Part shown: positions 41,812 through 53,008 of the stretch, piece by piece | How positions within the stretch are numbered: the stretch's first letter is position 1 | Layout of the letters: every line of letters begins with the position of its first letter | Source of the DNA: Achromobacter sp. AONIH1 | GTDB taxonomy: Bacteria; Pseudomonadota; Gammaproteobacteria; Burkholderiales; Burkholderiaceae_B | Reading direction: 5' to 3' | Length of the DNA stretch: 64,000 nt | Assembly: GCF_002902905.1 (NCBI RefSeq) | Contig: NZ_CP026124.1 | Location: 1,488,001 to 1,552,000 of the forward strand | Position numbers and translations under genes: made by a program | The notes under the pieces: generated by a model | What the model saw: the letters and a program-made list of their open reading frames with translations, nothing else | Told to the model about the DNA's origin: nothing | Database searches by the model: none

Positions 41812-42771
41812 TCAGTCCAGTGTCGCGCCCGTGAACTTGACGATCTCGGCGTAGCGCGTGATGTCCTGCCGCACGAAGGCGTCCAGTTCCTGCGGGCTGC
41901 TGCTGACCGCGGTGGCGGCCTCGGCGTCGAGCAGGCGACGGAAATCCGGCGACGCCACGGCATGGCGCGCCGCGTCGTTGAGCGCCGCCACAACGTCGGC
42001 CGGCATGCCTGCCGGGCCGAACAGCGCGAACCAGGCATTCGATTCAAAGCCCTTGATCGTGTCGCCGATGGGCGGCACGCCGGGAAACTGCGGCAGCGGC
42101 TGCGGGCTGGTCAGGCCCAGCGCCTTGAGCGCGCCGGACTTGATATGCGGCTGCGCGTTGAGCGAACTGGCGACCATCATGTCGACCTGGCCACCGAGCA
42201 GGTCGGTGATCGCCGGCGCCGTGCCCTTGTAGGGCACATTCAGGATATCCAGCCCGGCCATCATCTTCATACGCTCGCCGGCCATGTGCAGCGACGAGCC
42301 CAGCGCGCCGACCGCCATCGTGTACTTGCCAGGATGCGCCCGGACCTGTTCGACGAAGGTGGCCATGTCCTGAGCGGGGAAGTCCTTGCGCGTCACCAGC
42401 AGGCTGGGCACCCGGGCCAGCATGCTGATGGGTGTGAAGTCGCGGACCGGGTCGAAGGGCAGCTTGCGGTACAGCGAGGCGTTGATCGAAAAGCTCGTGA
42501 AGGTGACCAGCAGCGTGTTGCCGTCGGGCGCGCTCTTGGCGACGTAGTCGGCGGCGATGTTGCCGCCGGCGCCGGGACGGTTCTCGATCACGACGGTGCG
42601 CCGGAGCGTCTGGCTCATGTGCTGGCCGATGTTGCGGGCCACAGTGTCCGTGGTGCCGCCGGGCGGTGCGCCGACCACCAGCTTGACGGGCGGGGTCTGG
42701 GCGGCGACGGGCAGGCCGAACGCGCAGGCGACGAGCGCGCAGCGCGACAGGAAGCGGTGAAGTCGGGCCAA
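41812..42771 (-). CDS. Bug/TctC-family tripartite tricarboxylate-type binding protein
   Basis: A 319-residue periplasmic binding protein. An N-terminal signal (RFLSRCALVACAFGLPVAAQ) precedes the mature start TPPVKLVVGAPPGGTTD. The motif VVIENRPGAGGNIAADYVAK and GGQVDMM are Bug/TctC landmarks. Start is TTG at 42771 with GGAG eight bases upstream. Bug proteins bind carboxylates for TctAB-type or orphan uptake; the adjacent aromatic cluster hints at an aromatic or dicarboxylic acid. No TctAB membrane genes are nearby. Confidence 0.88.
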   Translation of the reverse strand: MARLHRFLSRCALVACAFGLPVAAQTPPVKLVVGAPPGGTTDTVARNIGQHMSQTLRRTVVIENRPGAGGNIAADYVAKSAPDGNTLLVTFTSFSINASLYRKLPFDPVRDFTPISMLARVPSLLVTRKDFPAQDMATFVEQVRAHPGKYTMAVGALGSSLHMAGERMKMMAGLDILNVPYKGTAPAITDLLGGQVDMMVASSLNAQPHIKSGALKALGLTSPQPLPQFPGVPPIGDTIKGFESNAWFALFGPAGMPADVVAALNDAARHAVASPDFRRLLDAEAATAVSSSPQELDAFVRQDITRYAEIVKFTGATLD

Positions 42772-43217: not shown

Positions 43218-43235
43218 ACTGTGATTTTGTACAGT
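43218..43235. promoter_or_regulatory. inverted repeat in the divergent dioxygenase promoter region
   Basis: ACTGT/ACAGT with an 8-nt centre, midway between the small minus-strand gene and the dioxygenase gene, and 50 bp upstream of the candidate dioxygenase promoter. It has the size of a GntR-type site. Confidence 0.4.
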
Positions 43236-43283: not shown

Positions 43284-43323
43284 TTGATCAGGCGCCATCC
43301 CCGGATTTAATATTTTCGAAAAT
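43284..43323 (+). promoter_or_regulatory. promoter and palindromic operator of the dioxygenase-nitrilase operon
   Basis: TTGATC (43284-43289), an 18-bp spacer and TAATAT (43308-43313). A perfect 12-bp palindrome ATTTTCGAAAAT (43312-43323) covers the -10 end and start site; flanking TTTAA and TAAA partly extend its symmetry. A repressor here, possibly the GntR protein encoded at 51376, would block transcription. Confidence 0.5.
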
Positions 43324-43351: not shown

Positions 43352-44476
43352 ATGGAGACGAACAGGTACGACGCATACCGCGAAGACCGGGCAGGCCGCG
43401 CCAATGTGGCCGACTCGCCGGAGCGCGTCGCCTATTACCAGGAGCTGGCGCGGCTGGAGACCGGCGCGCTGTGGACGGTGGCGAACAAGATCGAACCCTG
43501 GGCGCCGCGCTCGGCCTCGGTGCCTGTGGTCTGGCGCTACCAGGACCTGCGCGGCCACGTGCTGCGCTCGGCCGAGCTGGTCTCGCCCGAGGAAGCCGGC
43601 CGCCGCGTGATCTACCTGAACAATCCCGGCCGCCGCGACGTGGCCGCCGCCGTGGGCTGGCTGTACTCGGGCCTGCAGGTGATGAAGCCCGGCGAGCTGG
43701 CCTCGGCGCACGCGCACTCGCATTCCGCGCTGCGCTTCATCATGGAAGGTAGCGGCGCATACACCATCGTCGACGGCCACAAGATGACGCTGGGCGCGAA
43801 CGACTTCGTGCTCACGCCCAACGGCACCTGGCACGAACACGGCGTGTCCGAGGACGGCACCACCTGCATCTGGCAGGACGGCCTGGACATCCCGCTGGTC
43901 AACGCGCTGGAAGCCGGCTTCTATGCCGTGCATCCGGACCTGAACCAGGCCGTCACGCATCCAGTCGACGACACCACCGCCACCTGGGGCGGCGTGGCGC
44001 TGCGTCCGCAGGCCTCGGGCTGGACCAAGCCCTACTCGCCGCTGTTCAAGTACGAATGGGAGCCCACCTACGAGGCGCTGCGCCACTACGCGCGCGTCAC
44101 CGCCGGCAGCCCCTATGACGGCGTGCTGCTGGAGTACGTGAATCCCATGACCGGCGGGCCGGTGATGCCGACCATCGGCGCCAGCATGCAGCTGCTGCGG
44201 CCGGGCGAACACACCAAGGCGCACCGCCACACCGGCAGCTTCATCTACCAGGTGGCCAAGGGCAGCGGCTATTCCATCATCGAGGGCCGGCGCTACGACT
44301 GGACCGAGCGCGACATCTTCTGCGTGCCGTCTTGGGCCATGCACGAGCACGTCAACCTGTCCTCGAACGACGACGCCTGCCTGTTCTGTTTCAACGACCT
44401 GCCGGTCATGCGCGCGCTGTCGCTGTACCGCGAAGAGGCGCTCAAGGACAACGACGGTCATCAGACGCTGATCTGA
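43352..44476 (+). CDS. gentisate 1,2-dioxygenase-type bicupin ring-cleavage enzyme
   Basis: A 374-residue bicupin dioxygenase. The Fe(II) cupin carries HAHSHSALRFIMEG (His about 120-124) with the later TWHEHG; the second cupin has TKAHRHTGSFIYQVAKGSG and WAMHEHVN. Gentisate dioxygenases cleave 2,5-dihydroxybenzoate between C1 and C2; relatives act on salicylate, 5-halosalicylates or 1-hydroxy-2-naphthoate, so the exact ring compound is open. The ATG at 43352 has AGAGG upstream. It heads an operon with an FAH-family hydrolase and a Liv-type importer. Confidence 0.85.
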   Translation: METNRYDAYREDRAGRANVADSPERVAYYQELARLETGALWTVANKIEPWAPRSASVPVVWRYQDLRGHVLRSAELVSPEEAGRRVIYLNNPGRRDVAAAVGWLYSGLQVMKPGELASAHAHSHSALRFIMEGSGAYTIVDGHKMTLGANDFVLTPNGTWHEHGVSEDGTTCIWQDGLDIPLVNALEAGFYAVHPDLNQAVTHPVDDTTATWGGVALRPQASGWTKPYSPLFKYEWEPTYEALRHYARVTAGSPYDGVLLEYVNPMTGGPVMPTIGASMQLLRPGEHTKAHRHTGSFIYQVAKGSGYSIIEGRRYDWTERDIFCVPSWAMHEHVNLSSNDDACLFCFNDLPVMRALSLYREEALKDNDGHQTLI

Positions 44477-44561
44477 CGCGGTTCCAACAACGATTTTCTC
44501 TCCGACGCCCCGGCCCGCCGGGACGCCCGTATCCACTCGTCTTGAATTTTCTGGAGTTCCT

Positions 44562-45473
44562 ATGCGCTTGGTGACTTTTCGCGCCCATCCCGCCGCCGCT
44601 GGCCGTCTTGGCGCGCTGGCCGACGGCTATGTGATCGACCTGGCCCTGCTGGGACAGGCCGGCGGCGTGGCGCTGCCCGATGACATGCTGAGCTTCATCG
44701 ACCTGGGCCCGGCCGCGCTGGCGCAGGCCGCGCGCCTGCTCGAACAGTTCCGTGGCGCCTGGCCCGTGGGCGCCGCGCTGCCGCAGGAGAACGTCAAGCT
44801 GCTGGCGCCCATCCCGCGCCCGCGCAAGAACATCTTCGGCATCGGCCTGAACTATGTCGAGCACGTCGAGGAATCCAGCCGCACGCTGGATACGTCCGCC
44901 GACCTGCCCAAGCAGCCGGTGATCTTCTCCAAGCCGCCCACCACCGTGATCGGCCCGGGCGATGCGATCGAGCACAACGCCCGCATCACGCAGCAGCTGG
45001 ACTGGGAAGTCGAGCTGGCCGTGATCATGGGCCGGCGCGCCGCGCGCGTGGCCGAGGCCGACGCGCTGTCCTACGTGTTCGGCTATAGCGTGATGCTGGA
45101 CATGAGCGCGCGCGACTGCCGCCGCGCCGGCCAGTGGATCTATTCCAAGGGCCAGGACACCTATGCGCCGTTCGGTCCCTGCATCGTGACCGCCGACGAG
45201 ATCCCGGATCCGCAGAAGCTGGACCTGTGGCTCACGGTGAACGGCGAGAAGAAGCAGGGCTCGAACACGCGCCACATGCTGTTCAAGGTGCCGTTCCTGA
45301 TCTCGGACATCAGCGCCGGGATCACGCTGGAGCCGGGCGACATCATCGCCACCGGCACGCCGGAAGGCGTGGGCGCGGGTCGCAGCCCGCAGGAATGGCT
45401 GTGGCCGGGCGACGTGGTCGAGGCCGGCGTCGAGGGCATTGGCACGCTGCGCCATCCGGTCGTGGCCGTGTAA
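44562..45473 (+). CDS. fumarylacetoacetate-hydrolase-family protein (maleyl-/fumarylpyruvate hydrolase candidate)
   Basis: A 303-residue FAH-fold enzyme. The metal site is recognisable: NIFGIGLNYVEHVEES, PVIFSKPPTTVIGPG, LDWEVELAVIMG, the catalytic YVFGYSVMLDMSARD, and FLISDISAGITLEPGDIIAT, GTPEGVG. In gentisate pathways such enzymes split maleyl- or fumarylpyruvate to pyruvate and an organic acid. No maleylpyruvate isomerase gene accompanies it in the window, so direct maleylpyruvate hydrolysis or an isomerase elsewhere is needed. It follows the dioxygenase gene by 85 bp, clearly co-directional. Confidence 0.87.
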   Translation: MRLVTFRAHPAAAGRLGALADGYVIDLALLGQAGGVALPDDMLSFIDLGPAALAQAARLLEQFRGAWPVGAALPQENVKLLAPIPRPRKNIFGIGLNYVEHVEESSRTLDTSADLPKQPVIFSKPPTTVIGPGDAIEHNARITQQLDWEVELAVIMGRRAARVAEADALSYVFGYSVMLDMSARDCRRAGQWIYSKGQDTYAPFGPCIVTADEIPDPQKLDLWLTVNGEKKQGSNTRHMLFKVPFLISDISAGITLEPGDIIATGTPEGVGAGRSPQEWLWPGDVVEAGVEGIGTLRHPVVAV

Positions 45474-45544
45474 AGGCCGGCATTCCACGCAATCAATCCG
45501 CCCGGCGCGAGACGCCGGGCCATGCAGTCTCCAAGGGGAAAAAC

Positions 45545-46711
45545 ATGAACTGCAAAATGATCCTGGGATGCCTGGCGCTGGCCGCGGGCGCGTCGGCGCA
45601 GGCGGCCGGTCCGGTGAAGATCGGCTTCATCGCCACGCTGTCCACGCCGGCCGGGTACATCGGCGAGGACGAGCGCGACGCCTTCAACCTGGCCATCCAG
45701 CAGGGCGGCGGCAAGCTGGGCGGCGTGCCGGTCGAGCTGGTGATCGAGGACGACGGGCTCAAGCCCGCCAACGCCAAGCAGGCCGCCGACCGGCTGCTGC
45801 AATCGGGCGTCAGGCTCTACACCGGCGTGAACTTCTCGAACGTGCTGGCGGCAGTCGTGCCGGGCGTGGTGAAGTCGGGCGCGTTCTACGTCAGCCTGAA
45901 CCCCGGCCCGTCGAACTTCGCCGGCGAGAAGTGCGATCCCAACTACTTCGTCGCGTCCTACCAGAACGACGCCTTCCACACCGCCGGCGGCGTGGCGGCC
46001 AATGAACTGGGCTACAAGCGCGTGGTGCTGCTCGCGCCGAACTACCAGGCCGGCCGCGACGCCATCGAGGGCTTCAAGCGCACCTACAAGGGCGAGGTCG
46101 CGGCCGAGATCTACACCAAGCTCGACCAGTCGGACTTCTCGGTCGAGCTGGCGCGGCTGCGTTCGCTGGCGCCCGACGCGATCTACCAGTTCCATCCCGG
46201 CGGCACCGGCATCAACTTCGTCAAGCAGTACGCGGCGGCCGGGCTGAACAAGACCATCCCCATGCTGATGCCCAGCTTCTCGATGGATGCCCGCATGATC
46301 CAGGCCACCGGCGACGCCTCGCTGGGCGCCTACACCACCGGCATCTGGTCGATGGACTTCGACAATCCGCAGTCCAAGGCCTTCGTGGAAGCGTTCAAGA
46401 AGGCCTATGGCCGCGCGCCCACCGACTACGCCATGCAGGCCTACGACACGGCCCAGCTGATCGGCGCGGGCCTGAAGGCCACCGGCGGCGACCTGTCCAA
46501 GGCGGCTGAATTCCGCGCCGCGCTGCGCAAGCCCGAGTTCGCCTCGCTGCGTGGCAAGTTCAGCATGAACGTCAACCAGCACCCGATCCAGGACCTGTAC
46601 CTGATGCGCGTCGAGAAGGGCGCCGACGGCAGCCTGTCGCCGCGCCTGGTCCGCAAGCTGGTGTCCGATGACAAGGACGCCTACGCCCAACTCTGCAAGA
46701 TGCCGTCATGA
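45545..46711 (+). CDS. periplasmic branched-chain-amino-acid-type (Liv-like) binding protein
   Basis: A 388-residue type I periplasmic binding protein with signal peptide MNCKMILGCLALAAGASAQ (cleaved near QAA). Mature region begins PVKIGFIATLSTPAGYIGED, then DDGLKPANAKQAADRLLQSG, and AYDTAQLIGAGLKATGGDLS. AAGGGG lies 9 bases before the ATG. In catabolic operons such LivK-like proteins often bind aromatic acids rather than amino acids, in line with the preceding ring-cleavage genes. Its stop overlaps the permease start by four bases. Confidence 0.9.
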   Translation: MNCKMILGCLALAAGASAQAAGPVKIGFIATLSTPAGYIGEDERDAFNLAIQQGGGKLGGVPVELVIEDDGLKPANAKQAADRLLQSGVRLYTGVNFSNVLAAVVPGVVKSGAFYVSLNPGPSNFAGEKCDPNYFVASYQNDAFHTAGGVAANELGYKRVVLLAPNYQAGRDAIEGFKRTYKGEVAAEIYTKLDQSDFSVELARLRSLAPDAIYQFHPGGTGINFVKQYAAAGLNKTIPMLMPSFSMDARMIQATGDASLGAYTTGIWSMDFDNPQSKAFVEAFKKAYGRAPTDYAMQAYDTAQLIGAGLKATGGDLSKAAEFRAALRKPEFASLRGKFSMNVNQHPIQDLYLMRVEKGADGSLSPRLVRKLVSDDKDAYAQLCKMPS

Positions 46712-47622
46712 CGCTATTGTTCGAGCAGTTGCTCAACGGGCTGCAGTTCGGCGCCATGCTGTTCATGCTGGCGGCCGGACTGACCCTGATCTTCGGGATC
46801 ATGGGCGTGGTCAACCTGACCCACGGCTCGTTCTACATGGTGGGCGCGTACTGCGCCGCCTACGCCATCGGCACCACCGGCTCGTTCCTCGCGGGCGTAC
46901 TGGCGGCGCTGCTGGGGGCGGGGCTGTACGGCCTGACGGTCGAGATCCTGGTGATACGCCGGCTCTACAAGCGCGATCACCTGTACCAGGTGCTGGCCAC
47001 CTTCGGCCTGCTGCTGTTCAGCAACGAGGCGGTCAGCCTGATCTTCGGCCGCCGTCCGCCGCTGGTCGGCATCCCGTCCTTCCTGGAAGGCGCGGCGACG
47101 CTGGCGCCGGGCTTCCAGTACCCGATCATTCGGCTGGCCTTCATCGCCATCGGCGCGGCCGTGGCGCTGGGCCTGTGGTGGCTGGTCAACCGCACCCGCG
47201 TCGGCATGCTGATCCGCGCCGGCGCCGACGACCGCGAGATGGTCGACGCGCTGGGCATGGATATCAAGAAACTCTACACCCTGGTGTTCGGCCTGGGCGC
47301 GCTGCTGTGCGGCCTGGCGGGCGTGATGGCCGCGCCGCTGCTGGCCGTCGAGATCGGCATGGGCGAGCGCATCCTGATCACCACCTTCGTGGTCATCGTG
47401 ATCGGCGGCGTGGGCTCGGTGCGCGGGGCGCTGGCCGGCGCGCTACTGGTGGGCATGGTGGACAGCCTGGGGCGCGCCTTTCTGCCGCAGCTGCTGGGCG
47501 CGGTGTTCTCGCCGGCCACCGCCGATCCGCTGGCCGCGGGCCTGGCCTCGGCCAGCATTTACGTACTGATGGCGATCGTGCTGATCGCCAAGCCGGGCGG
47601 GTTGTTCCCGGCGCGAGGATGA
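46708..47622 (+). CDS. Liv-type ABC transporter permease (LivH-like)
   Basis: A 304-residue inner-membrane permease, eight or so transmembrane helices. Landmarks are LQFGAMLFMLAAGLTLIFGI, MGVVNLTHGSFYMVGAYCAA, and the EAA-like VDALGMDIKKLYTLVFGLGA, with the VVIVIGGVGSVRGALAGALL segment that defines LivH. Start and stop codons interlock with neighbours (ATGA at both ends), so the permeases are translated in concert. Confidence 0.92.
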   Translation: MTLLFEQLLNGLQFGAMLFMLAAGLTLIFGIMGVVNLTHGSFYMVGAYCAAYAIGTTGSFLAGVLAALLGAGLYGLTVEILVIRRLYKRDHLYQVLATFGLLLFSNEAVSLIFGRRPPLVGIPSFLEGAATLAPGFQYPIIRLAFIAIGAAVALGLWWLVNRTRVGMLIRAGADDREMVDALGMDIKKLYTLVFGLGALLCGLAGVMAAPLLAVEIGMGERILITTFVVIVIGGVGSVRGALAGALLVGMVDSLGRAFLPQLLGAVFSPATADPLAAGLASASIYVLMAIVLIAKPGGLFPARG

Positions 47623-48605
47623 GCATGGGCATGACACTTTCCAATCGCGGCCGCTGGGGCCTGGCGGGGCTGGCCCTGCTGATCCTGCTGCCGGCCGCGG
47701 CGGCGGCATCGGGCTCGCCGTTCCTGATCGGCGTGGTGACGCGCTTCCTGATCTATGGCCTGGCAGCCGTCAGCCTGGACCTGGTCATCGGCTATGGCGC
47801 CATGGTGAGCTTCGGCCACGCCATGTTCTTCGGCCTGGGCGGCTATGCCGTGGGCATCATCGCCTTCCACACGTCCGAGGCCGGACCCATCTTCGGCTGG
47901 GCCGGCAGCAACGCGGCGCTGGTGGTCTGGCCGATCGCGCTGGCGGTGTGCGCGCTGGCTGGCTGGGTCTTCGGCTTTCTGGCGCTGCGCACGCGCGGCG
48001 TGCAGTTCATCATGATCACGCTGGCGTTCGGGCAGATGGTGTATTTCATCCTGGTGTCGCTGCAGTTCTACGGCGGCGACGACGGGCTGATGATCTCGGC
48101 GCGCAACACGCTGCCGGGCATCAACCTGGAAAGCCCGCTGGTTTTCTACTACGTGTGCCTGGCGCTGCTGACGGCCTGGACGCTCCTGTGCATGCGCATC
48201 ACCAGCTCGCGCTTCGGCATGGTGCTGCAGGCGCTGCGCCAGAGCGAGCGGCGCGCGCTGAATCTGGGCGTGGCGCCCACGCCGTACCGTCTGGGGGCCT
48301 TCGTGCTGTCGGCGGTGGGCACCGGCCTGGCCGGCGTGCTGTGGGCCAACTATGCCGGCCTGGTGACGCCGGACATGGCCGCCTGGACCAAGTCGGGCGA
48401 GCTGATGGCCATCGTGATCCTGGGCGGCGTGGGCACGCTGCTGGGGCCGATCGCCGGCGCCGCCGTGTTCCTGGGGCTGGAGCAGGTGCTGACGTCGCTG
48501 ACCGAGCACTGGCTGCTGTACATGGGGCCGATCCTGGTGCTGGTGGTGCTGTGCGGCCAAAAGGGCTTGTTCGGCAGCCTCTTGGAGACGCGCCATGCTG
48601 ATTAA
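47619..48605 (+). CDS. Liv-type ABC transporter permease (LivM-like)
   Basis: A 328-residue permease. After an N-terminal helix it has SLDLVIGYGAMVSFGHAMFF, ALRTRGVQFIMITLAFGQMV, LRQSERRALNLGVAPTPYRL (EAA loop) and MAIVILGGVGTLLGPIAGAA, all LivM motifs. The first ATG at 47619 overlaps the LivH stop; a later ATG at 47625 or 47631 is also possible. Its last codons contain the ribosome site GGAG and ATG of livG. Confidence 0.91.
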   Translation: MSMGMTLSNRGRWGLAGLALLILLPAAAAASGSPFLIGVVTRFLIYGLAAVSLDLVIGYGAMVSFGHAMFFGLGGYAVGIIAFHTSEAGPIFGWAGSNAALVVWPIALAVCALAGWVFGFLALRTRGVQFIMITLAFGQMVYFILVSLQFYGGDDGLMISARNTLPGINLESPLVFYYVCLALLTAWTLLCMRITSSRFGMVLQALRQSERRALNLGVAPTPYRLGAFVLSAVGTGLAGVLWANYAGLVTPDMAAWTKSGELMAIVILGGVGTLLGPIAGAAVFLGLEQVLTSLTEHWLLYMGPILVLVVLCGQKGLFGSLLETRHAD

Positions 48606-49515
48606 GCCCACCCCCGAAGCGCTGCGCGCTTCCCCATCAAGGGGGCGCCTCGGCGGACCGGCGGAGCCGGATCCGCGCGGCCCCGGTAGAAACAGTCGCG
48701 ATGGCGACGCTGCTGCTCATGGTGAGGCCGGCGCGCTGCTGCGCCTGTCCGGCCTGCGCAAGGCCTTCGACGCGGTGGTGGCCACCAACGGCGTGGACCT
48801 GGACGTGCGCGCCGGCGAGATCCACGCCATCATCGGCCCGAACGGCGCAGGCAAGTCCACGCTGATCGCGCAGATCTGCGGCGAGATCCGGCCCGATTCC
48901 GGCTCCATCCACCTGGACGGCCGCGACGTGACGGCGCTGCGCGCCTTCGAGCGCGCGCGGCTGGGCCTGGGCCGCTCGTTCCAGATCACCGAGCTGTGCC
49001 AGGAATACACGGCGCTGGAGAACGTGATCCTGTCCTGCATGCTCAAGACCGGCCGGGCCTTTCAGCTCTGGTCCGACCCGCGCCGCGACGCCGGGCTCAA
49101 GGAGCAGGCGTTGGGCTGGCTGGAGCACGTGGGCCTGCGCGACCGCCGCCATGTGCGCACCGCCGACCTGGCGCATGGCGAGAAGCGCCAGCTGGAGCTG
49201 GCCGTGGCGCTGGCCCGCTCGCCGCGATTGCTGCTGCTGGACGAGCCCATGGCCGGCATGGGGCCGGAGGAATCGGCCCGCATGACCCGGCTGCTGCAAG
49301 GCATGAAGGGGCAGTACGGCATCCTGCTGGTCGAGCACGACATGGACGCCGTGTTCGCGCTGGCCGACCGCATCAGCGTGCTGGTGTACGGCAAGGTGGT
49401 GTTCAGCGGGCCGCCCGACGCGGTGCGCCGCCATCCGGAGGTGCGCGCCGCCTACCTGGGCGAGGAAAGCGTCGGCGAGGCGCGGGCTTTGGGAGAAGCG
49501 CATGTTGAAGGTTGA
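48595..49515 (+). CDS. Liv-type ABC transporter ATPase (LivG-like) with repeat-derived N-terminal extension
   Basis: A 306-residue ATPase, about 50 residues longer than usual LivG. The ABC core begins near residue 49 (LLRLSGLRKAFDAVVATNGV). Walker A is GPNGAGKST, signature LAHGEKRQLELAV, Walker B LLLLDEPMAGMG. The ATG at 48595 sits inside the livM end, GGAG eight bases before it. Residues about 5-30 ([20 protein letters not shown]...) are encoded by a type A repeat, and no ATG lies in frame between it and the core, so the extension must be translated unless a non-ATG start is used. Confidence 0.9.
   Translation: MLIKPTPEALRASPSRGRLGGPAEPDPRGPGRNSRDGDAAAHGEAGALLRLSGLRKAFDAVVATNGVDLDVRAGEIHAIIGPNGAGKSTLIAQICGEIRPDSGSIHLDGRDVTALRAFERARLGLGRSFQITELCQEYTALENVILSCMLKTGRAFQLWSDPRRDAGLKEQALGWLEHVGLRDRRHVRTADLAHGEKRQLELAVALARSPRLLLLDEPMAGMGPEESARMTRLLQGMKGQYGILLVEHDMDAVFALADRISVLVYGKVVFSGPPDAVRRHPEVRAAYLGEESVGEARALGEAHVEG
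48607..48682 (+). repeat. type A interspersed repeat, copy 4 (within livG reading frame)
   Basis: CCCACCCCCGAAGCGCTGCG, then CCCCATCAAGGGGG and GGACCGGCGGAGCCGGATCC. Starts two bases after the livM stop and is read in frame as the start of LivG. Near match to copy 3 read on the other strand. Confidence 0.8.
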
Positions 49516-50194
49516 GGAGCTGACCGGCGGGTACGGGTCCAGCAAGGTGCTGTTCGGCATGGCCTTCGAGGCCAGCGAGGGCGAAGTCATCTCGCTGATC
49601 GGCCGCAATGGCATGGGCAAGACCACCACCGTCAAGACGCTGATGGGCATGCTGCCCGCCACCGGCGGCAGCGTGACCTTCCGTGGCCGCGTGCTGGGCC
49701 GCTCGGCGCCCAGCGCGGTGGCGCGCCTGGGCGTGGGCCTGGTGCCCGAGGGGCGGCGCGTGTTCGGTTCGCTGAGCGTGCGCGAGAACCTGGTGGCCAC
49801 GGCGCGGCCCGCGTCCGGCGGTTGGTCGCTGGAGCGCGTGTATGAACTGTTTCCCAGGCTGAAGGAACGCAGCGGCCAGTCCTCGCGCACGCTGTCCGGC
49901 GGCGAGCAGCAGATGCTGGTGGTCGGCCGCGCGCTGATGACCAATCCCAAGCTGCTGATCCTGGACGAGGCCACCGAAGGTCTGGCGCCGCTGATCCGCC
50001 AGGAAATCTGGCGTTGCCTGCGCGCATTGAAGGCCGAGGGCCAGACCATCCTGGTGATCGACAAGAACCTGCCGGAAATGGCCACCCTGGTCGACCGGCA
50101 TTACATCGTGGACAAGGGGCGCGTAGCCTGGTCCGGCAAACCCGCCGAGCTGTCGGCGCAGCCGGAACTGGCGCAGCGCTACCTGGGCATCTGA
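49502..50194 (+). CDS. Liv-type ABC transporter ATPase (LivF-like)
   Basis: A 230-residue ATPase: ELTGGYGSSKVLFGMAFEAS, Walker A GRNGMGKTT, VGLVPEGRRVFGSLSVRENL (LivF hallmark), signature LSGGEQQML, Walker B LLILDEATEGLAP. Overlaps the livG end by 14 bases. With LivG it powers the LivHM channel. Nitrilase gene follows 14 bp later. Confidence 0.93.
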   Translation: MLKVEELTGGYGSSKVLFGMAFEASEGEVISLIGRNGMGKTTTVKTLMGMLPATGGSVTFRGRVLGRSAPSAVARLGVGLVPEGRRVFGSLSVRENLVATARPASGGWSLERVYELFPRLKERSGQSSRTLSGGEQQMLVVGRALMTNPKLLILDEATEGLAPLIRQEIWRCLRALKAEGQTILVIDKNLPEMATLVDRHYIVDKGRVAWSGKPAELSAQPELAQRYLGI

Positions 50195-50208
50195 ACGGAG
50201 ACGAACGC

Positions 50209-51252
50209 ATGTTGAACCTGCCTGTATTCAAGGCCGCCGCGGTCCAGGCCGCGCCGGTATTCCTGGACACCGACGCCACCGTCGACAAGGCCTGCGCGTT
50301 GATATCCGAGGCCGCCGGCAACGGCGCCAAGCTGGTCGCGTTCCCGGAGGTCTACATCTCGGCCTATCCGTACTGGAGCTGGGTGATGAACCCGGTCGAG
50401 GCCAGCCCCTGGTTCGAGAAGCTGTGCCGCAGCGCCATCGAACTGCCCGGCCCGGAAATCCGCCGCATCGCCCAGGCCGCGCGCCAGCATCACGTCCACG
50501 TGGTGATGGGCGTGAACGAGCGCAGCCGCCATGGCGTCAGCACCATCTACAACACCATGGTGTTCATCAGCGACGAAGGCCGCATCCTGGGCCGGCATCG
50601 CAAGCTGGTGCCGACCTGGGCCGAGAAGCTGACCTGGGCGCACGGCGACGGCGAGTCGCTGCGCGTGTACGACACCCCGGTCGGCAAGCTGGGCGGCCTG
50701 GCCTGCGGCGAGAACACCAACACCCTGGCGCGCTTCTCGCTGCTGGCGCAGGGCGAGATGGTGCACGTGGCCAGCTACATCTCGCTGCCGGTGGCGCCGC
50801 CCGACTACGACATGGCCGAGGCGATCCGGTTGCGGGCCTCGGCCCACAGCTTCGAGGGCAAGGTGTTCACCGTGGTGTCCTGCTCCACGATCTCGAAAGA
50901 GATTCAGGATGCCATCGGCGCCAGCCACCCGCAGGCCCGCGAGACGCTGGCCCGCCGCAACAGCGCGTTCTCCGGCATCATCGGGCCGGACGGCCGTGTC
51001 ATCGGCGAACCGCTGATCGATGATGAAGGCATTGTCTATGCCGACATCGACCTGTCGCGCTGCATCCAGCCGCGACAGATGCACGACATCGTGGGCCACT
51101 ACAACCGCTTCGACGTGTTCGACCTGCGGGTGAACCGCCGGCCGTTGCGGGCCGCCCGCTTTGACGACGGACAGGAGCCGGACCTGAACGAGGGGCTGGA
51201 CGAGGGGTTGGACGAGGGCAAGACGCCGGCCGAGGCCAGGGCGCGCGGGTAG
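50209..51252 (+). CDS. nitrilase-superfamily carbon-nitrogen hydrolase (aliphatic/aromatic nitrilase type)
   Basis: A 347-residue nitrilase with the triad Glu (AFPEVYISAYPYW), Lys (HRKLVPTWAEKLTWAHGD) and Cys (GGLACGENTNTLARF, about residue 168). HGD, YNTMVFI and RRNSAF are typical of true nitrilases, which turn R-CN into the acid plus ammonia. Members with CGENTN rather than CWE occur among arylacetonitrilase-like proteins. The C-terminus ends in an acidic repeated tail (NEGLDEGLDEGK). GGAG lies 12 bases upstream. Being the gene right after the importer, it may act on the imported compound, such as a hydroxybenzonitrile; amidase or cyanide-hydratase activity cannot be excluded. Confidence 0.86.
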   Translation: MLNLPVFKAAAVQAAPVFLDTDATVDKACALISEAAGNGAKLVAFPEVYISAYPYWSWVMNPVEASPWFEKLCRSAIELPGPEIRRIAQAARQHHVHVVMGVNERSRHGVSTIYNTMVFISDEGRILGRHRKLVPTWAEKLTWAHGDGESLRVYDTPVGKLGGLACGENTNTLARFSLLAQGEMVHVASYISLPVAPPDYDMAEAIRLRASAHSFEGKVFTVVSCSTISKEIQDAIGASHPQARETLARRNSAFSGIIGPDGRVIGEPLIDDEGIVYADIDLSRCIQPRQMHDIVGHYNRFDVFDLRVNRRPLRAARFDDGQEPDLNEGLDEGLDEGKTPAEARARG

Positions 51253-51375
51253 AATGAGCCGCCCGCGCGTCGCCGCGCCGCAGCGGCCGCAATCAGCCAG
51301 CCGCGCACGCCGCGCGGCCGGCTCGCCGGCGCGCCCGCGCCGCGCGCGGACCAAGCCGCCTGTCTGGAGAGCATC

Positions 51376-52137
51376 TTGAGACCAAGAATCAAAGCGTCCC
51401 GCCTGGACGAGCCCGGGTCGGACGGAAGCCCCGAAATAGAAGAAATCACGCTGTCCGAGCAGGTCTACCGGCTGCTGCGGCGGGACATCATGAGCGGCGC
51501 CTTCGCGCCGGGCCAGTCGCTGCGCCTGGAGCTGCTCAAGCAGCGCTACGGCAGCAGCTTCTCGCCCATCCGCGAGGCGCTCAACCGCCTGCGCAGCGAG
51601 CGCATGGTGGTCAGCACCACCTCGCGCGGTTTTCGCATCGCGCCGCTGTCGGTCGAGGAAATGTGGGACGCCTGCGAAACCCGCATCCTGATCGATTGCG
51701 AGGCGCTGCGGCGTTCATTGGGCAACGCCGACGACGCCTGGGAGGCGCGGCTGGTGGGCGCCTATCACGCGCTGACGCTGGCCGCGCAGCGAGCCGGCGA
51801 GGCCGTCCCGCCGGACCAGGAACTGGAAGAGCTGCTGGAAGCGCGCCACCTGGATTTCCACCACGCGCTGATCGGGGCCTGCCGCTCGCACTGGCTGCTG
51901 GATCTGTCCACGCAGCTGTATGCGCAGACCGAGCGCTACCGCCGTCCGGCGCGCGCCGGCGCGACCGCCTACGGGCCGGAGCGCAATGTCGACGACGAGC
52001 ACCGCCAGCTGCTGGACGCGGCGCTGTCGCGCGACGCCGACAAGTCGGCGGCCATGCTGGCCGCGCATTACCGCAAGACCGCGCAGTTCATCGAACACAT
52101 CATCTCGACCCAGGACAGGCAGGCCCTTCATGCGTGA
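51376..52137 (+). CDS. GntR-family regulator (FCD domain, FadR subclass)
   Basis: A 253-residue regulator with winged helix EQVYRLLRRDIMSGAFAPGQ, LRLELLKQRYGSSFSPIREA and LNRLRSERMVVSTTSRGFRI, and an all-helical FCD ligand domain (CETRILIDCEALRRS, DLDFHHALIGACRS-type, here HLDFHHALIGACRS) with metal-binding His/Asp. The start is TTG at 51376 following CTGGAGAGCATC. It probably controls the aromatic-nitrilase operon using a carboxylate effector. It overlaps the next gene by eight bases. Confidence 0.9.
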   Translation: MRPRIKASRLDEPGSDGSPEIEEITLSEQVYRLLRRDIMSGAFAPGQSLRLELLKQRYGSSFSPIREALNRLRSERMVVSTTSRGFRIAPLSVEEMWDACETRILIDCEALRRSLGNADDAWEARLVGAYHALTLAAQRAGEAVPPDQELEELLEARHLDFHHALIGACRSHWLLDLSTQLYAQTERYRRPARAGATAYGPERNVDDEHRQLLDAALSRDADKSAAMLAAHYRKTAQFIEHIISTQDRQALHA

Positions 52138-53008
52138 CGTCACTCCCGATCTTTTCTTCGCCTCGATCGCCGAGCGCGAGGTGCAGTACAACGCGCGCGC
52201 CTCGGTCGCGGATTTCGACGCCTGCGTGCGCCGCTACGCGGAATCGGCGGCGCGCGTGCGCACGCGCCGGCCGGCCGTGCTGAACCTGCGGTACGGCATG
52301 GGCCAGGACGAAAGGCTGGACCTGTTCCTGCCGGCCGCCGCGCAGGCTTCGGCGCCGCTGTTCGTGTTCATCCATGGCGGCTACTGGCGCTCGCAGCGCA
52401 AGGAAGACGCGCCCGTCATGGCCGAGGCGTTCAACGCGGCCGGCGCCGCCGTGGCCACGCTGGAGTACACGCTGCTGCCCGAAGCCACGCTGCCCGAGGT
52501 GGTGCGCGAGGTCCGCTCCGCCGTGGCCTGGCTGTACCGCAACGCCGCCGCCTATGGCGTGGATCCCGCGCGCATCTACGTCAGCGGCAGCTCGGCCGGC
52601 GGCCATCTGGCGGGCATGCTGGCCGCGCCGGACTGGCAGGCGCGCTACGGCGTGCCGGACGACGTGATCAAGGGCACGCTGGCCCTGAGCGGCCTGTTCG
52701 ACCTGCGCCCGCTGTGCGACATCAGCGTCAGCGACTGGCTGCGCCTGACGCCCGAGCAGGCCAGGCTGCAAAGCCCGATCTTTCACCTGCCCGCGCAGGC
52801 CGGTCCCATGCTGCTGGCCGTGGGCGGCCTGGAGACGCAGGGTTTCAAGAATCAGACCGATGCCTATGAGGCCGCCTGGCGCGCCGCCGGCCTGTCGGCC
52901 ACGCGCATCGCCACGCCGCAGTGCAATCACTTCGATCTGGTCAATGAGCTGGAGGATCCGGACAGCGATCTGACGCGGGCGACCCTGGAGATGATGGGGC
53001 TGCGGTGA
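52130..53008 (+). CDS. alpha/beta-hydrolase of the arylformamidase/carboxylesterase type
   Basis: A 292-residue hydrolase. HGGYWRSQRKEDAPVMAEAF (oxyanion HGG-W), ISVSGSSAGGHLAGMLA elbow (GSSAG nucleophile Ser, about residue 163), Asp near LLAVGGLETQGFK and the catalytic His in CNHFDLV. The HGGYW motif is that of kynurenine formamidase-like enzymes, which cleave aryl N-formyl bonds or aryl esters. Here, last in the operon, it may remove an acyl or amide group from the aromatic compound. Starts in the gntR end. Confidence 0.82.
   Translation: MRDVTPDLFFASIAEREVQYNARASVADFDACVRRYAESAARVRTRRPAVLNLRYGMGQDERLDLFLPAAAQASAPLFVFIHGGYWRSQRKEDAPVMAEAFNAAGAAVATLEYTLLPEATLPEVVREVRSAVAWLYRNAAAYGVDPARIYVSGSSAGGHLAGMLAAPDWQARYGVPDDVIKGTLALSGLFDLRPLCDISVSDWLRLTPEQARLQSPIFHLPAQAGPMLLAVGGLETQGFKNQTDAYEAAWRAAGLSATRIATPQCNHFDLVNELEDPDSDLTRATLEMMGLR

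What the first reader, a model, noticed from the sequence alone, without database searches (positions are those of the whole stretch)
43352..53008. Operon combining gentisate-type dioxygenase, FAH hydrolase, Liv importer, nitrilase, GntR regulator and arylformamidase-like hydrolase
Ten genes run in one direction, most overlapping or a few bases apart. Ring-cleavage and FAH enzymes are typical of gentisate breakdown, but no maleylpyruvate isomerase or aryl hydroxylase is present. A true-nitrilase triad (CGENTN form) and an HGGYW hydrolase follow the importer. Inference: the cell imports an aromatic nitrile or amide-linked dihydroxybenzoate, converts it to a free acid, and cleaves the ring. I know of no described pathway with this combination.
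Basis: partly seen in the sequence, partly recalled or inferred. Interest (0 to 1): 0.7.

Follow-up and report, generated by a model that had tools for sequence, protein, structure and literature searches.

The report
Amide route for cleaving aminated rings
A bacterial gene cluster that looked like an odd gentisate operon is better read as the lower half of a pathway that cuts a ring still carrying its amino group, and its supposed nitrilase probably strips ammonia from the resulting small amide.

Summary
The ten same-strand genes are real. Dioxygenase, FAH hydrolase and nitrilase form a conserved unit: in 200 family genomes 41 of 50 close nitrilase copies lie within 10 kb of the dioxygenase, same strand. 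A fourth member, maleate isomerase, is absent from the window but present elsewhere in this genome. The quartet recurs in alpha- and betaproteobacteria and one actinomycete. Of eight close nitrilase copies without a dioxygenase nearby by that count, five adjoin maleate isomerase. In 16 of 80 related loci the unit lies with auxin-type 2-oxoacid oxidoreductase and acyl-CoA 5-hydroxylase genes. This genome has a separate canonical gentisate operon with maleylpyruvate isomerase. Best reading: 5-hydroxyanthranilate is cleaved to maleamylpyruvate, hydrolysed to maleamate plus pyruvate, deamidated by the nitrilase to maleate, isomerised to fumarate. In the window this module has its own importer and alpha/beta hydrolase. 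The R. pomeroyi quartet's cupin is the 'gentisate dioxygenase' of PDB 3BU7. Nothing was assayed; substrates are inferred.

The parts
43352..44476 (+). Bicupin ring-cleaving dioxygenase (GDO), 374 aa, 3BU7 family; proposed 5-hydroxyanthranilate 1,2-dioxygenase
   Evidence: Two cupin stretches; TIGR02272 316.7 bits, below cut-off 442.1; 3BU7 580 bits; metal His of both cupins and gentisate-binding residues kept
44562..45473 (+). FAH-fold hydrolase, 303 aa; proposed maleamylpyruvate hydrolase giving maleamate + pyruvate
   Evidence: PF01557 240 bits; solved hits include maleylpyruvate hydrolase 6JVV, 127 bits, not the best hit (8SKY, 202); in 78 of 80 GDO loci
45545..46711 (+). Liv-type periplasmic substrate-binding protein
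   Evidence: PF13458 256 bits; best solved relative 4EVQ
46708..47622 (+). LivH-type permease
   Evidence: PF02653
47619..48605 (+). LivM-type permease
   Evidence: PF02653; ATG overlaps the LivH stop
48595..49515 (+). LivG-type ATPase; called start is probably too far upstream
   Evidence: PF00005 from residue 65; genome-wide repeat inside the called N terminus
49502..50194 (+). LivF-type ATPase
   Evidence: PF00005
50209..51252 (+). Nitrilase-family C-N hydrolase (NIT, CGENTN type), 347 aa; proposed maleamate amidase
   Evidence: PF00795; Glu-Lys-Cys motifs; linkage to GDO and maleate isomerase
51376..52137 (+). GntR/FCD regulator, likely controlling the cluster
   Evidence: PF00392 + PF07729; kept with GDO-FAH even where Liv and NIT are absent from the locus (L010, L026-L028)
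52130..53008 (+). Alpha/beta hydrolase with HGGYW and GSSAGG (arylformamidase-like); proposed deacylase of the imported compound
   Evidence: PF20434; Drosophila-type kynurenine formamidase chain 4E11 65 bits, third after 9N8R and 2PBL (species recalled); accompanies the importer
43312..43323 (.). Perfect palindrome ATTTTCGAAAAT, candidate operator
   Evidence: Identical in all rows of the alignment of window and Achromobacter upstream regions
43218..43235 (.). ACTGT-N8-ACAGT inverted repeat, candidate operator
   Evidence: Largely conserved in the same alignment

Best explanation
The cluster is a lower catabolic module that opens an aromatic ring still bearing its amino group. Proposed route: 5-hydroxyanthranilate (2-amino-5-hydroxybenzoate) -> [GDO, C1-C2 cleavage; the carbon carrying NH2 becomes a carboxamide] maleamylpyruvate -> [FAH, no cis-trans isomerisation] pyruvate + maleamate -> [NIT acting as amidase] maleate + NH3 -> [maleate isomerase; in this genome at another locus] fumarate. 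In relatives the same module lies with 2-oxoacid oxidoreductase IorAB, an acyl-CoA 5-hydroxylase and a thioesterase, where it would take auxin- or indole-derived anthraniloyl-CoA to fumarate. In the window the upper part is instead a Liv importer and an alpha/beta hydrolase that would take up and deacylate an outside N- or O-conjugate of the same ring acid, under a GntR regulator. Shown: gene content, linkage, conservation across phyla, linkage of NIT to maleate isomerase, a separate canonical gentisate operon. Inferred: every substrate and the amide chemistry.
For: NIT-GDO linkage in 41 of 50 close copies. Quartet NIT, GDO, FAH, maleate isomerase in 8 of 9 plasmid regions fetched, in two gene orders, including an actinomycete. 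NIT within 150 bp of maleate isomerase in 8 of 50 copies, 5 of them without GDO; in four of those five the same transporter gene (81-98% identical among them) is also adjacent, metabolite/H+ symporter type in the one scanned. 46 of 48 NIT genomes hold a maleate isomerase against 39 of the other 152. The isomerase: 334 bits to 4FQ7. Upper genes in 16 of 80 loci with NIT: IorA and hydroxylase; the hydroxylase scanned, L036, is over the cut-off for bifunctional salicylyl-CoA 5-hydroxylase/oxidoreductase (1340.8 vs 1078), with 4HBT thioesterase, IorB, cyclase and MarR genes nearby. Same genome: canonical GDO over cut-off (569.9) with FAH and maiA at C1:1615530-1617971, so the window set probably does another job. 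A different nitrilase clade is in 9 further GDO loci, directly beside GDO or FAH in 8. 5-Hydroxyanthraniloyl-CoA is a reported product of 2-aminobenzoyl-CoA monooxygenase/reductase when NADH is limiting (PMC3534580, passages).
Against: No activity was measured. GDO keeps the gentisate-binding residues, and the 3BU7 enzyme was, as I recall, assayed on gentisate (paper not held). Claus and Kutzner 1983 are reported to have found anthranilate going to gentisate in Alcaligenes (PMC6221969, PMC8383072, passages). 18 of 24 Achromobacter loci lack NIT though GDO-FAH persist (L008 is a short contig), and 5 of 7 NIT-less genomes of the genus with GDO also lack the isomerase at the cut-off used; how they finish the route is unknown. 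Three Bradyrhizobium loci have IorA, GDO and FAH but neither nitrilase, hydroxylase nor isomerase in the stretch. Six of 35 non-Achromobacter NIT loci, both Alcaligenes loci among them, lack the isomerase in the stretch. L103-L106 hold two nitrilase types together, which the maleamate role does not explain. L107 and L108 (60% identical NIT) have neither GDO nor isomerase. Described maleamate amidases are, as I recall, isochorismatase-fold; NIT belongs to the true-nitrilase branch. This genome's isomerase and hydroxylase lie about 58 and 126 kb from the cluster.
Confidence: 0.58

Rival explanations
1. Gentisate-type lower pathway without amide: gentisate (or a substituted gentisate) is cleaved to maleylpyruvate, FAH hydrolyses it directly to maleate + pyruvate, maleate isomerase gives fumarate; NIT supplies ammonia or acid from an unrelated nitrile or amide.
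For: Gentisate-binding residues intact; 6JVV maleylpyruvate hydrolase among the FAH hits; gentisate proposed in Alcaligenes; many Achromobacter loci do without NIT.
Against: NIT is left without a role although it tracks GDO and maleate isomerase; a canonical gentisate operon with maiA exists in the same genome; window GDO is below the gentisate equivalog cut-off.
Confidence: 0.22
2. Upstream nitrile role (first reader, or indole-3-acetonitrile to auxin): NIT turns an imported aromatic or indolic nitrile into the acid that the other enzymes degrade.
For: NIT is in the true-nitrilase branch with CGENTN; 16 of 41 NIT-bearing GDO loci also hold IorA.
Against: NIT adjoins maleate isomerase where neither GDO nor IorA was found in the stretch (L098-L101); the Leisingera quartet has no IorAB annotated in the stretch; 25 of 41 NIT-bearing GDO loci show no IorA in the stretch held.
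Confidence: 0.1
3. NIT makes maleate from a small C4 nitrile such as cis-3-cyanoacrylate or a dinitrile rather than from maleamate.
For: Two nitrilase types sit in one neighbourhood in L103-L106, with TRAP genes in L103 and Liv-type genes in L106; some characterised nitrilases prefer fumaronitrile (recalled).
Against: Ring cleavage by a cupin dioxygenase would give an amide, not a nitrile (chemistry, inferred); close NIT copies are mostly coupled to GDO-FAH.
Confidence: 0.1

Closest known systems
Canonical gentisate pathway (gentisate 1,2-dioxygenase, maleylpyruvate isomerase, fumarylpyruvate hydrolase)
   Same: Bicupin dioxygenase, FAH-fold hydrolase, pyruvate and fumarate as proposed end products
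   Different: No maleylpyruvate isomerase in the window; a nitrilase and (in 29 of 41 NIT-bearing loci) a maleate isomerase instead; dioxygenase below the equivalog cut-off; the same genome has the canonical set separately
3BU7, 'gentisate 1,2-dioxygenase' of Ruegeria (Silicibacter) pomeroyi DSS-3
   Same: Same bicupin family, histidines of both cupins aligned; its gene lies in the NIT-GDO-FAH-maleate isomerase operon
   Different: Named for gentisate; its paper is not held here, so what was assayed is recalled only
Nicotinate/nicotine lower pathway (N-formylmaleamate, maleamate, maleate, fumarate; recalled)
   Same: Would share maleamate -> maleate -> fumarate with a maleate isomerase
   Different: Its maleamate amidase is an isochorismatase-type enzyme (recalled), here a nitrilase-type candidate; ring and dioxygenase differ
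iad auxin degradation locus (Variovorax, Achromobacter, Alcaligenes, Bradyrhizobium)
   Same: In Alcaligenes, Cupriavidus and Caballeronia relatives the module lies with IorAB and, in several, MarR, cyclase or Rieske genes of iad type
   Different: Published iad work ends at anthranilate in the passages seen, and neither paper holds 'gentis' or 'nitrilase' (PMC9613470, PMC12633357); in the window the module stands apart with an importer
5-Aminosalicylate / 5-nitrosalicylate dioxygenases
   Same: Cupin dioxygenases of amino- or nitro-substituted salicylates
   Different: NF049978 272.9 bits, below its cut-off 650; 5-nitrosalicylate dioxygenase is a monocupin not active on 5-hydroxyanthranilate (PMC10306065, passages)

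Membership tests
Gentisate 1,2-dioxygenase (TIGR02272) | Score over the curated equivalog cut-off | tested here: not met
   316.7 vs 442.1 bits; the paralogue in the same genome scores 569.9
Gentisate 1,2-dioxygenase (TIGR02272) | Three metal histidines and gentisate-binding residues (SDO Arg83, Gln108, Arg127, His162, Asp174) | tested here: met
   R84, Q109, R128, H163, D176 and H120/H122/H161 by my reading of the alignments; residue roles from PMC10306065 passages
Canonical gentisate pathway | Maleylpyruvate isomerase in the cluster | tested here: not met
   No TIGR01262 match within the window; one over cut-off beside the other GDO
Nitrilase, branch 1 | Glu-Lys-Cys triad motifs in a CN_hydrolase fold | tested here: met
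   PF00795 145 bits; FPE 45, RHRK 129, CGEN 166
Nit6803 nitrilase (TIGR04048) | Score over the curated cut-off | tested here: not met
   240.2 vs 502.6 bits
Nitrilase, branch 1 | Hydrolysis of a nitrile | not testable with these tools
   Needs enzyme assay
Maleamate amidase (function) | Maleamate to maleate + NH3 | not testable with these tools
   Only genomic linkage to maleate isomerase
5-Aminosalicylate 1,2-dioxygenase MabB (NF049978) | Score over the curated cut-off | tested here: not met
   272.9 vs 650 bits
Arylformamidase / kynurenine formamidase | HGGYW oxyanion motif and Ser nucleophile (motif role recalled) | tested here: met
   HGGYW 82, GSSAGG 153
Arylformamidase / kynurenine formamidase | Assignment by a curated family model | tested here: inconclusive
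   Best NCBIfam HaHSL_fam 172.8, below its cut-off 320; no formamidase model among the 12 listed
iad auxin locus | IorAB, MarR and Rieske genes in the cluster | tested here: not met
   None among the ten genes; the genome's IorAB and MarR lie at about C1:2.12 Mb

The most novel reading that the evidence does not exclude
A previously undescribed amide-retaining ring-cleavage pathway: a gentisate-like bicupin cleaves 5-hydroxyanthranilate to an amide, cis geometry is kept to the end, and a true nitrilase has been turned into the maleamate amidase, with a second nitrilase clade recruited separately beside the same dioxygenase. It would complete bacterial auxin and indole degradation from anthraniloyl-CoA to fumarate, and the importer version in Achromobacter would let cells eat plant or microbial 5-hydroxyanthranilate conjugates such as oat avenanthramides.
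Probability: 0.4. Interest if true: 0.75.

Novelty: new variant of a known kind. Interest (0 to 1): 0.62.

Why it matters
A 2018 review calls the enzyme of the anthranilate-to-gentisate route unreported and its functional gene not yet revealed, citing the indole-degrading Alcaligenes of 1983 (PMC6221969, passages); another paper cites the same work for auxin (PMC8383072, passages). Alcaligenes faecalis carries this set next to auxin-type genes, though without maleate isomerase in the stretch held (L068), so that question becomes directly testable with a handful of genes. It would also correct annotations: proteins named gentisate dioxygenase (3BU7 included) and aliphatic nitrilase (names) would be a 5-hydroxyanthranilate dioxygenase and a maleamate amidase, the latter in a family I do not recall in that role.

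Tried and rejected
Aromatic nitrile as the imported substrate: rejected as main reading because NIT tracks maleate isomerase. Plain gentisate operon: not preferred because the canonical set lies elsewhere in the genome. An isochorismatase-type maleamate amidase in NIT-less clusters was looked for only by reading the first 50 residues of neighbouring ORFs in eleven loci, not by a family search; none recognised. NIT in order and class samples: 2 of 300 genomes at E <= 1e-120 and 1 of 369 at E <= 1e-100, each count including the own genome, so it is rare there and breadth outside the family rests on named contigs and plasmids. A protein search scored 8000 candidates, 6205 at E <= 1e-60, names mostly 'nitrilase' or 'carbon-nitrogen hydrolase' where given; only 120 were listed. 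Promoter and terminator scans did not exceed shuffles. Rfam reported only the tRNA. Papers: searches gave no paper that, from listings and passages, describes this gene set or a nitrilase acting on maleamate; one search listed 40 of 80 papers, one search listed 20 of 24; the library lacks most subscription journals.

Rows dropped before counts: 8 of 58 NIT hits with 43-60% identity were left out of the 50; none is near GDO, and the two looked at in DNA (L107, L108) have no isomerase either. In one search only the isomerase rows of NIT-bearing genomes, one per genome, were pasted; the omitted second copies are not within 10 kb of a NIT by the coordinates. The Liv/hydrolase table used 69 of 80 loci with at least 9.5 kb downstream; outside it two loci break the pattern: L065 has the hydrolase without Liv ATPases, and L113 has hydrolase and LivF together with the CoA hydroxylase and thioesterase. 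One of ten plasmid records (H5) was not fetched. ORF calling was crude and lost some genes; (tblastn, identity and coverage thresholds of my choosing) supersedes it. Loci are the best 80 of 553 and lean to Achromobacter (24). Counts over related loci are not independent, so the Fisher values overstate.

Full report
Observation. The window lies in an Achromobacter-like genome (6.65 Mb, window = C1:1488001-1552000; the best named relatives are Achromobacter, 90-93% GDO identity). Ten + strand genes at 43352-53008 are open: bicupin dioxygenase (GDO), FAH-fold hydrolase, Liv binding protein, two permeases, two ATPases, nitrilase-family hydrolase (NIT), GntR/FCD regulator, alpha/beta hydrolase. Six of nine junctions overlap or are 14 bp apart; three gaps are 71, 85 and 123 bp.

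The dioxygenase is not the cell's canonical gentisate enzyme. It scores 316.7 bits against a cut-off of 442.1 for TIGR02272, while a paralogue at C1:1616949-1617971 scores 569.9 and has an FAH gene and a maleylpyruvate isomerase (TIGR01262, over cut-off, C1:1615530-1616156) beside it. The window enzyme keeps the residues that bind gentisate and the histidines of both cupins, but has WQDGLD and TPNGTWHEHG where the paralogue has WLDGLD and TPSWTWHDHG. It therefore most likely binds a benzoate with a heteroatom at C2 and OH at C5; gentisate and 5-hydroxyanthranilate both fit (inference).

Linkage. In 200 genomes of the family, 50 NIT copies of at least 70% identity (48 genomes) were found; 41 lie within 10 kb of a GDO, all on the same strand, 33 of them about 1.0-1.3 kb away, room for one FAH gene, and 8 about 5.6-5.9 kb away, as in the window. 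G073 has a shorter GDO match that fell below the threshold (L102), which would make 42. Of the other eight, five adjoin maleate isomerase directly (G036, G132, G148, G059, G027) and three (second copies in G035 and G091, and G030) lie near a second nitrilase type with transporter genes. Eight weaker NIT hits (43-60%) have no GDO near. Genomes with NIT: 42 of 48 also have GDO and 46 of 48 a maleate isomerase, against 39 of the other 152.

The isomerase is not a loose label: its best solved relatives are maleate cis-trans isomerase 4FQ7/4FQ5 at 334/330 bits. Among 80 named GDO loci (the best 80 of 553), FAH is found in 78, NIT in 41, the isomerase in 29, and all 29 have NIT. Nine more loci, mainly of sphingomonads and rhodobacters, have another nitrilase, directly beside GDO or FAH in eight of them; it is 33-36% identical to the window's and has a CWEN motif in the seven seen as ORFs. 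In four genomes without GDO, NIT, the isomerase and one transporter gene (81-98% identical among the four) stand next to one another (L098-L101); the copy scanned, in L099, is a metabolite/H+ symporter type. A plasmid search gave ten NIT records; of nine fetched, eight hold NIT, GDO, FAH and the isomerase together: Ruegeria, Caballeronia, two Shinella, Leisingera, Sulfitobacter, Sagittula and the actinomycete Embleya. The order is NIT-GDO-FAH-isomerase in six (Ruegeria, one Shinella, Leisingera, Sulfitobacter, Sagittula, Embleya) and GDO-FAH-NIT-isomerase in Caballeronia and the other Shinella. The Polaromonas record, 53% identical, shows Liv genes but no GDO. The R. pomeroyi cupin is identical over 374 residues to PDB 3BU7, so a structure from this operon is in the PDB under the name gentisate 1,2-dioxygenase.

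Upper modules. In 16 of 80 loci, from Caballeronia, Cupriavidus, Paraburkholderia, Alcaligenes and others, NIT, IorA and a salicylyl-CoA 5-hydroxylase-like protein co-occur; the one scanned (L036) is over the family cut-off, 1340.8 vs 1078, and lies with a 4HBT thioesterase, IorB, MarR and cyclase genes. IorA, MarR and Rieske genes are iad auxin-locus genes: published iad work follows indole-3-acetate to anthranilate in the passages seen (PMC9613470 and PMC12633357). 2-Aminobenzoyl-CoA monooxygenase/reductase, which I recall as the same kind of two-part enzyme, can give 5-hydroxyanthraniloyl-CoA (PMC3534580, passages). With the thioesterase this gives 5-hydroxyanthranilate, and C1-C2 cleavage of that ring must turn the NH2-bearing carbon into a carboxamide. 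Hydrolysis then gives maleamate, which needs an amidase and a maleate isomerase, and these are the two extra genes. This chemistry is inference; it is the only reading found here that gives each of these genes a step.

Window version. Of 69 loci with enough sequence, 27 have both Liv ATPase genes on the GDO strand and 25 of those also the alpha/beta hydrolase; none of the other 42 has it (6 of 8 versus 0 of 38 without Achromobacter); none of the 27 has IorA. Outside that set L065 and L113 break the pattern. So importer plus hydrolase seems to replace the CoA-dependent upper part, pointing to an outside conjugate. The binding protein's best solved relatives are 4EVQ and kin, which I recall as binders of aromatic acids. 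Avenanthramides of oat contain 5-hydroxyanthranilate (recalled; the term occurs in several avenanthramide papers of the listing). In this genome a hydroxylase (78%) lies at C1:1666912 with SDR, acyl-CoA dehydrogenase, CoA ligase, thioesterase and RidA-type genes, the isomerase (67%) at C1:1472770, and IorA (68%) at C1:2122801, so the whole route could run from scattered loci.

Against. The gentisate-binding residues are intact, gentisate was proposed in Alcaligenes, 18 of 24 Achromobacter loci lack NIT, and 5 of 7 such genomes in the family sample also lack the isomerase. Three Bradyrhizobium loci (L071, L081, L084) have IorA, GDO and FAH without nitrilase, hydroxylase or isomerase in the stretch; 6 of 35 non-Achromobacter NIT loci, both Alcaligenes loci among them, lack the isomerase in the stretch. 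Two-nitrilase clusters (L103-L106) are unexplained. Nothing here measures activity. I put about 0.8 on 'NIT acts after ring cleavage, at the C4 level' and 0.58 on the full 5-hydroxyanthranilate/maleamate route.

Literature. Cain 1968 is reported to have found 5-hydroxyanthranilate and gentisate as intermediates in Nocardia (PMC4539516, passages). [quoted passage not shown] Searches found no description of this gene set in the listings; the library is open-access only.

Noticed in passing
window 48611-48635: A palindromic repeat, CCCCCGAAGCGCT-centred, sits inside the called N terminus of LivG; 75 sites with up to 2 mismatches occur in the genome and none in the reversed-pattern control. It looks like a REP-type intergenic element and suggests a later LivG start.
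   Followed up: partly
L103, L104, L105, L106: CGENTN-type and CWEN-type nitrilases lie in the same neighbourhood, with TRAP transporter genes in L103 and Liv-type genes in L106. Substrate unknown, possibly a dinitrile or cyano-amide.
   Followed up: no
L109, L110, L111: Second dioxygenase copies (72-73% identical) stand without FAH, NIT or isomerase in the stretch, followed by a gene of one family; the one scanned (L109) is an AraC-type regulator that matches the anthranilate-dioxygenase regulator AndR below cut-off.
   Followed up: no
L010, L026, L027, L028: Some Achromobacter loci keep only dioxygenase-FAH-GntR; Liv, NIT and the alpha/beta hydrolase are absent from the stretch.
   Followed up: partly
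L094 (C1:1660000-1676000): This genome's salicylyl-CoA 5-hydroxylase homologue is followed by SDR, acyl-CoA dehydrogenase, CoA ligase, thioesterase and RidA-type genes, which could also fit the reductive 2-aminobenzoyl-CoA route.
   Followed up: partly
L113 (unnamed relative): LivF, alpha/beta hydrolase, thioesterase, CoA 5-hydroxylase, GDO and FAH occur together, a mixture of the two upper modules, without NIT.
   Followed up: no
window 41812-42771 (-): A TctC/Bug-type tripartite tricarboxylate receptor gene lies upstream of the cluster on the opposite strand.
   Followed up: no
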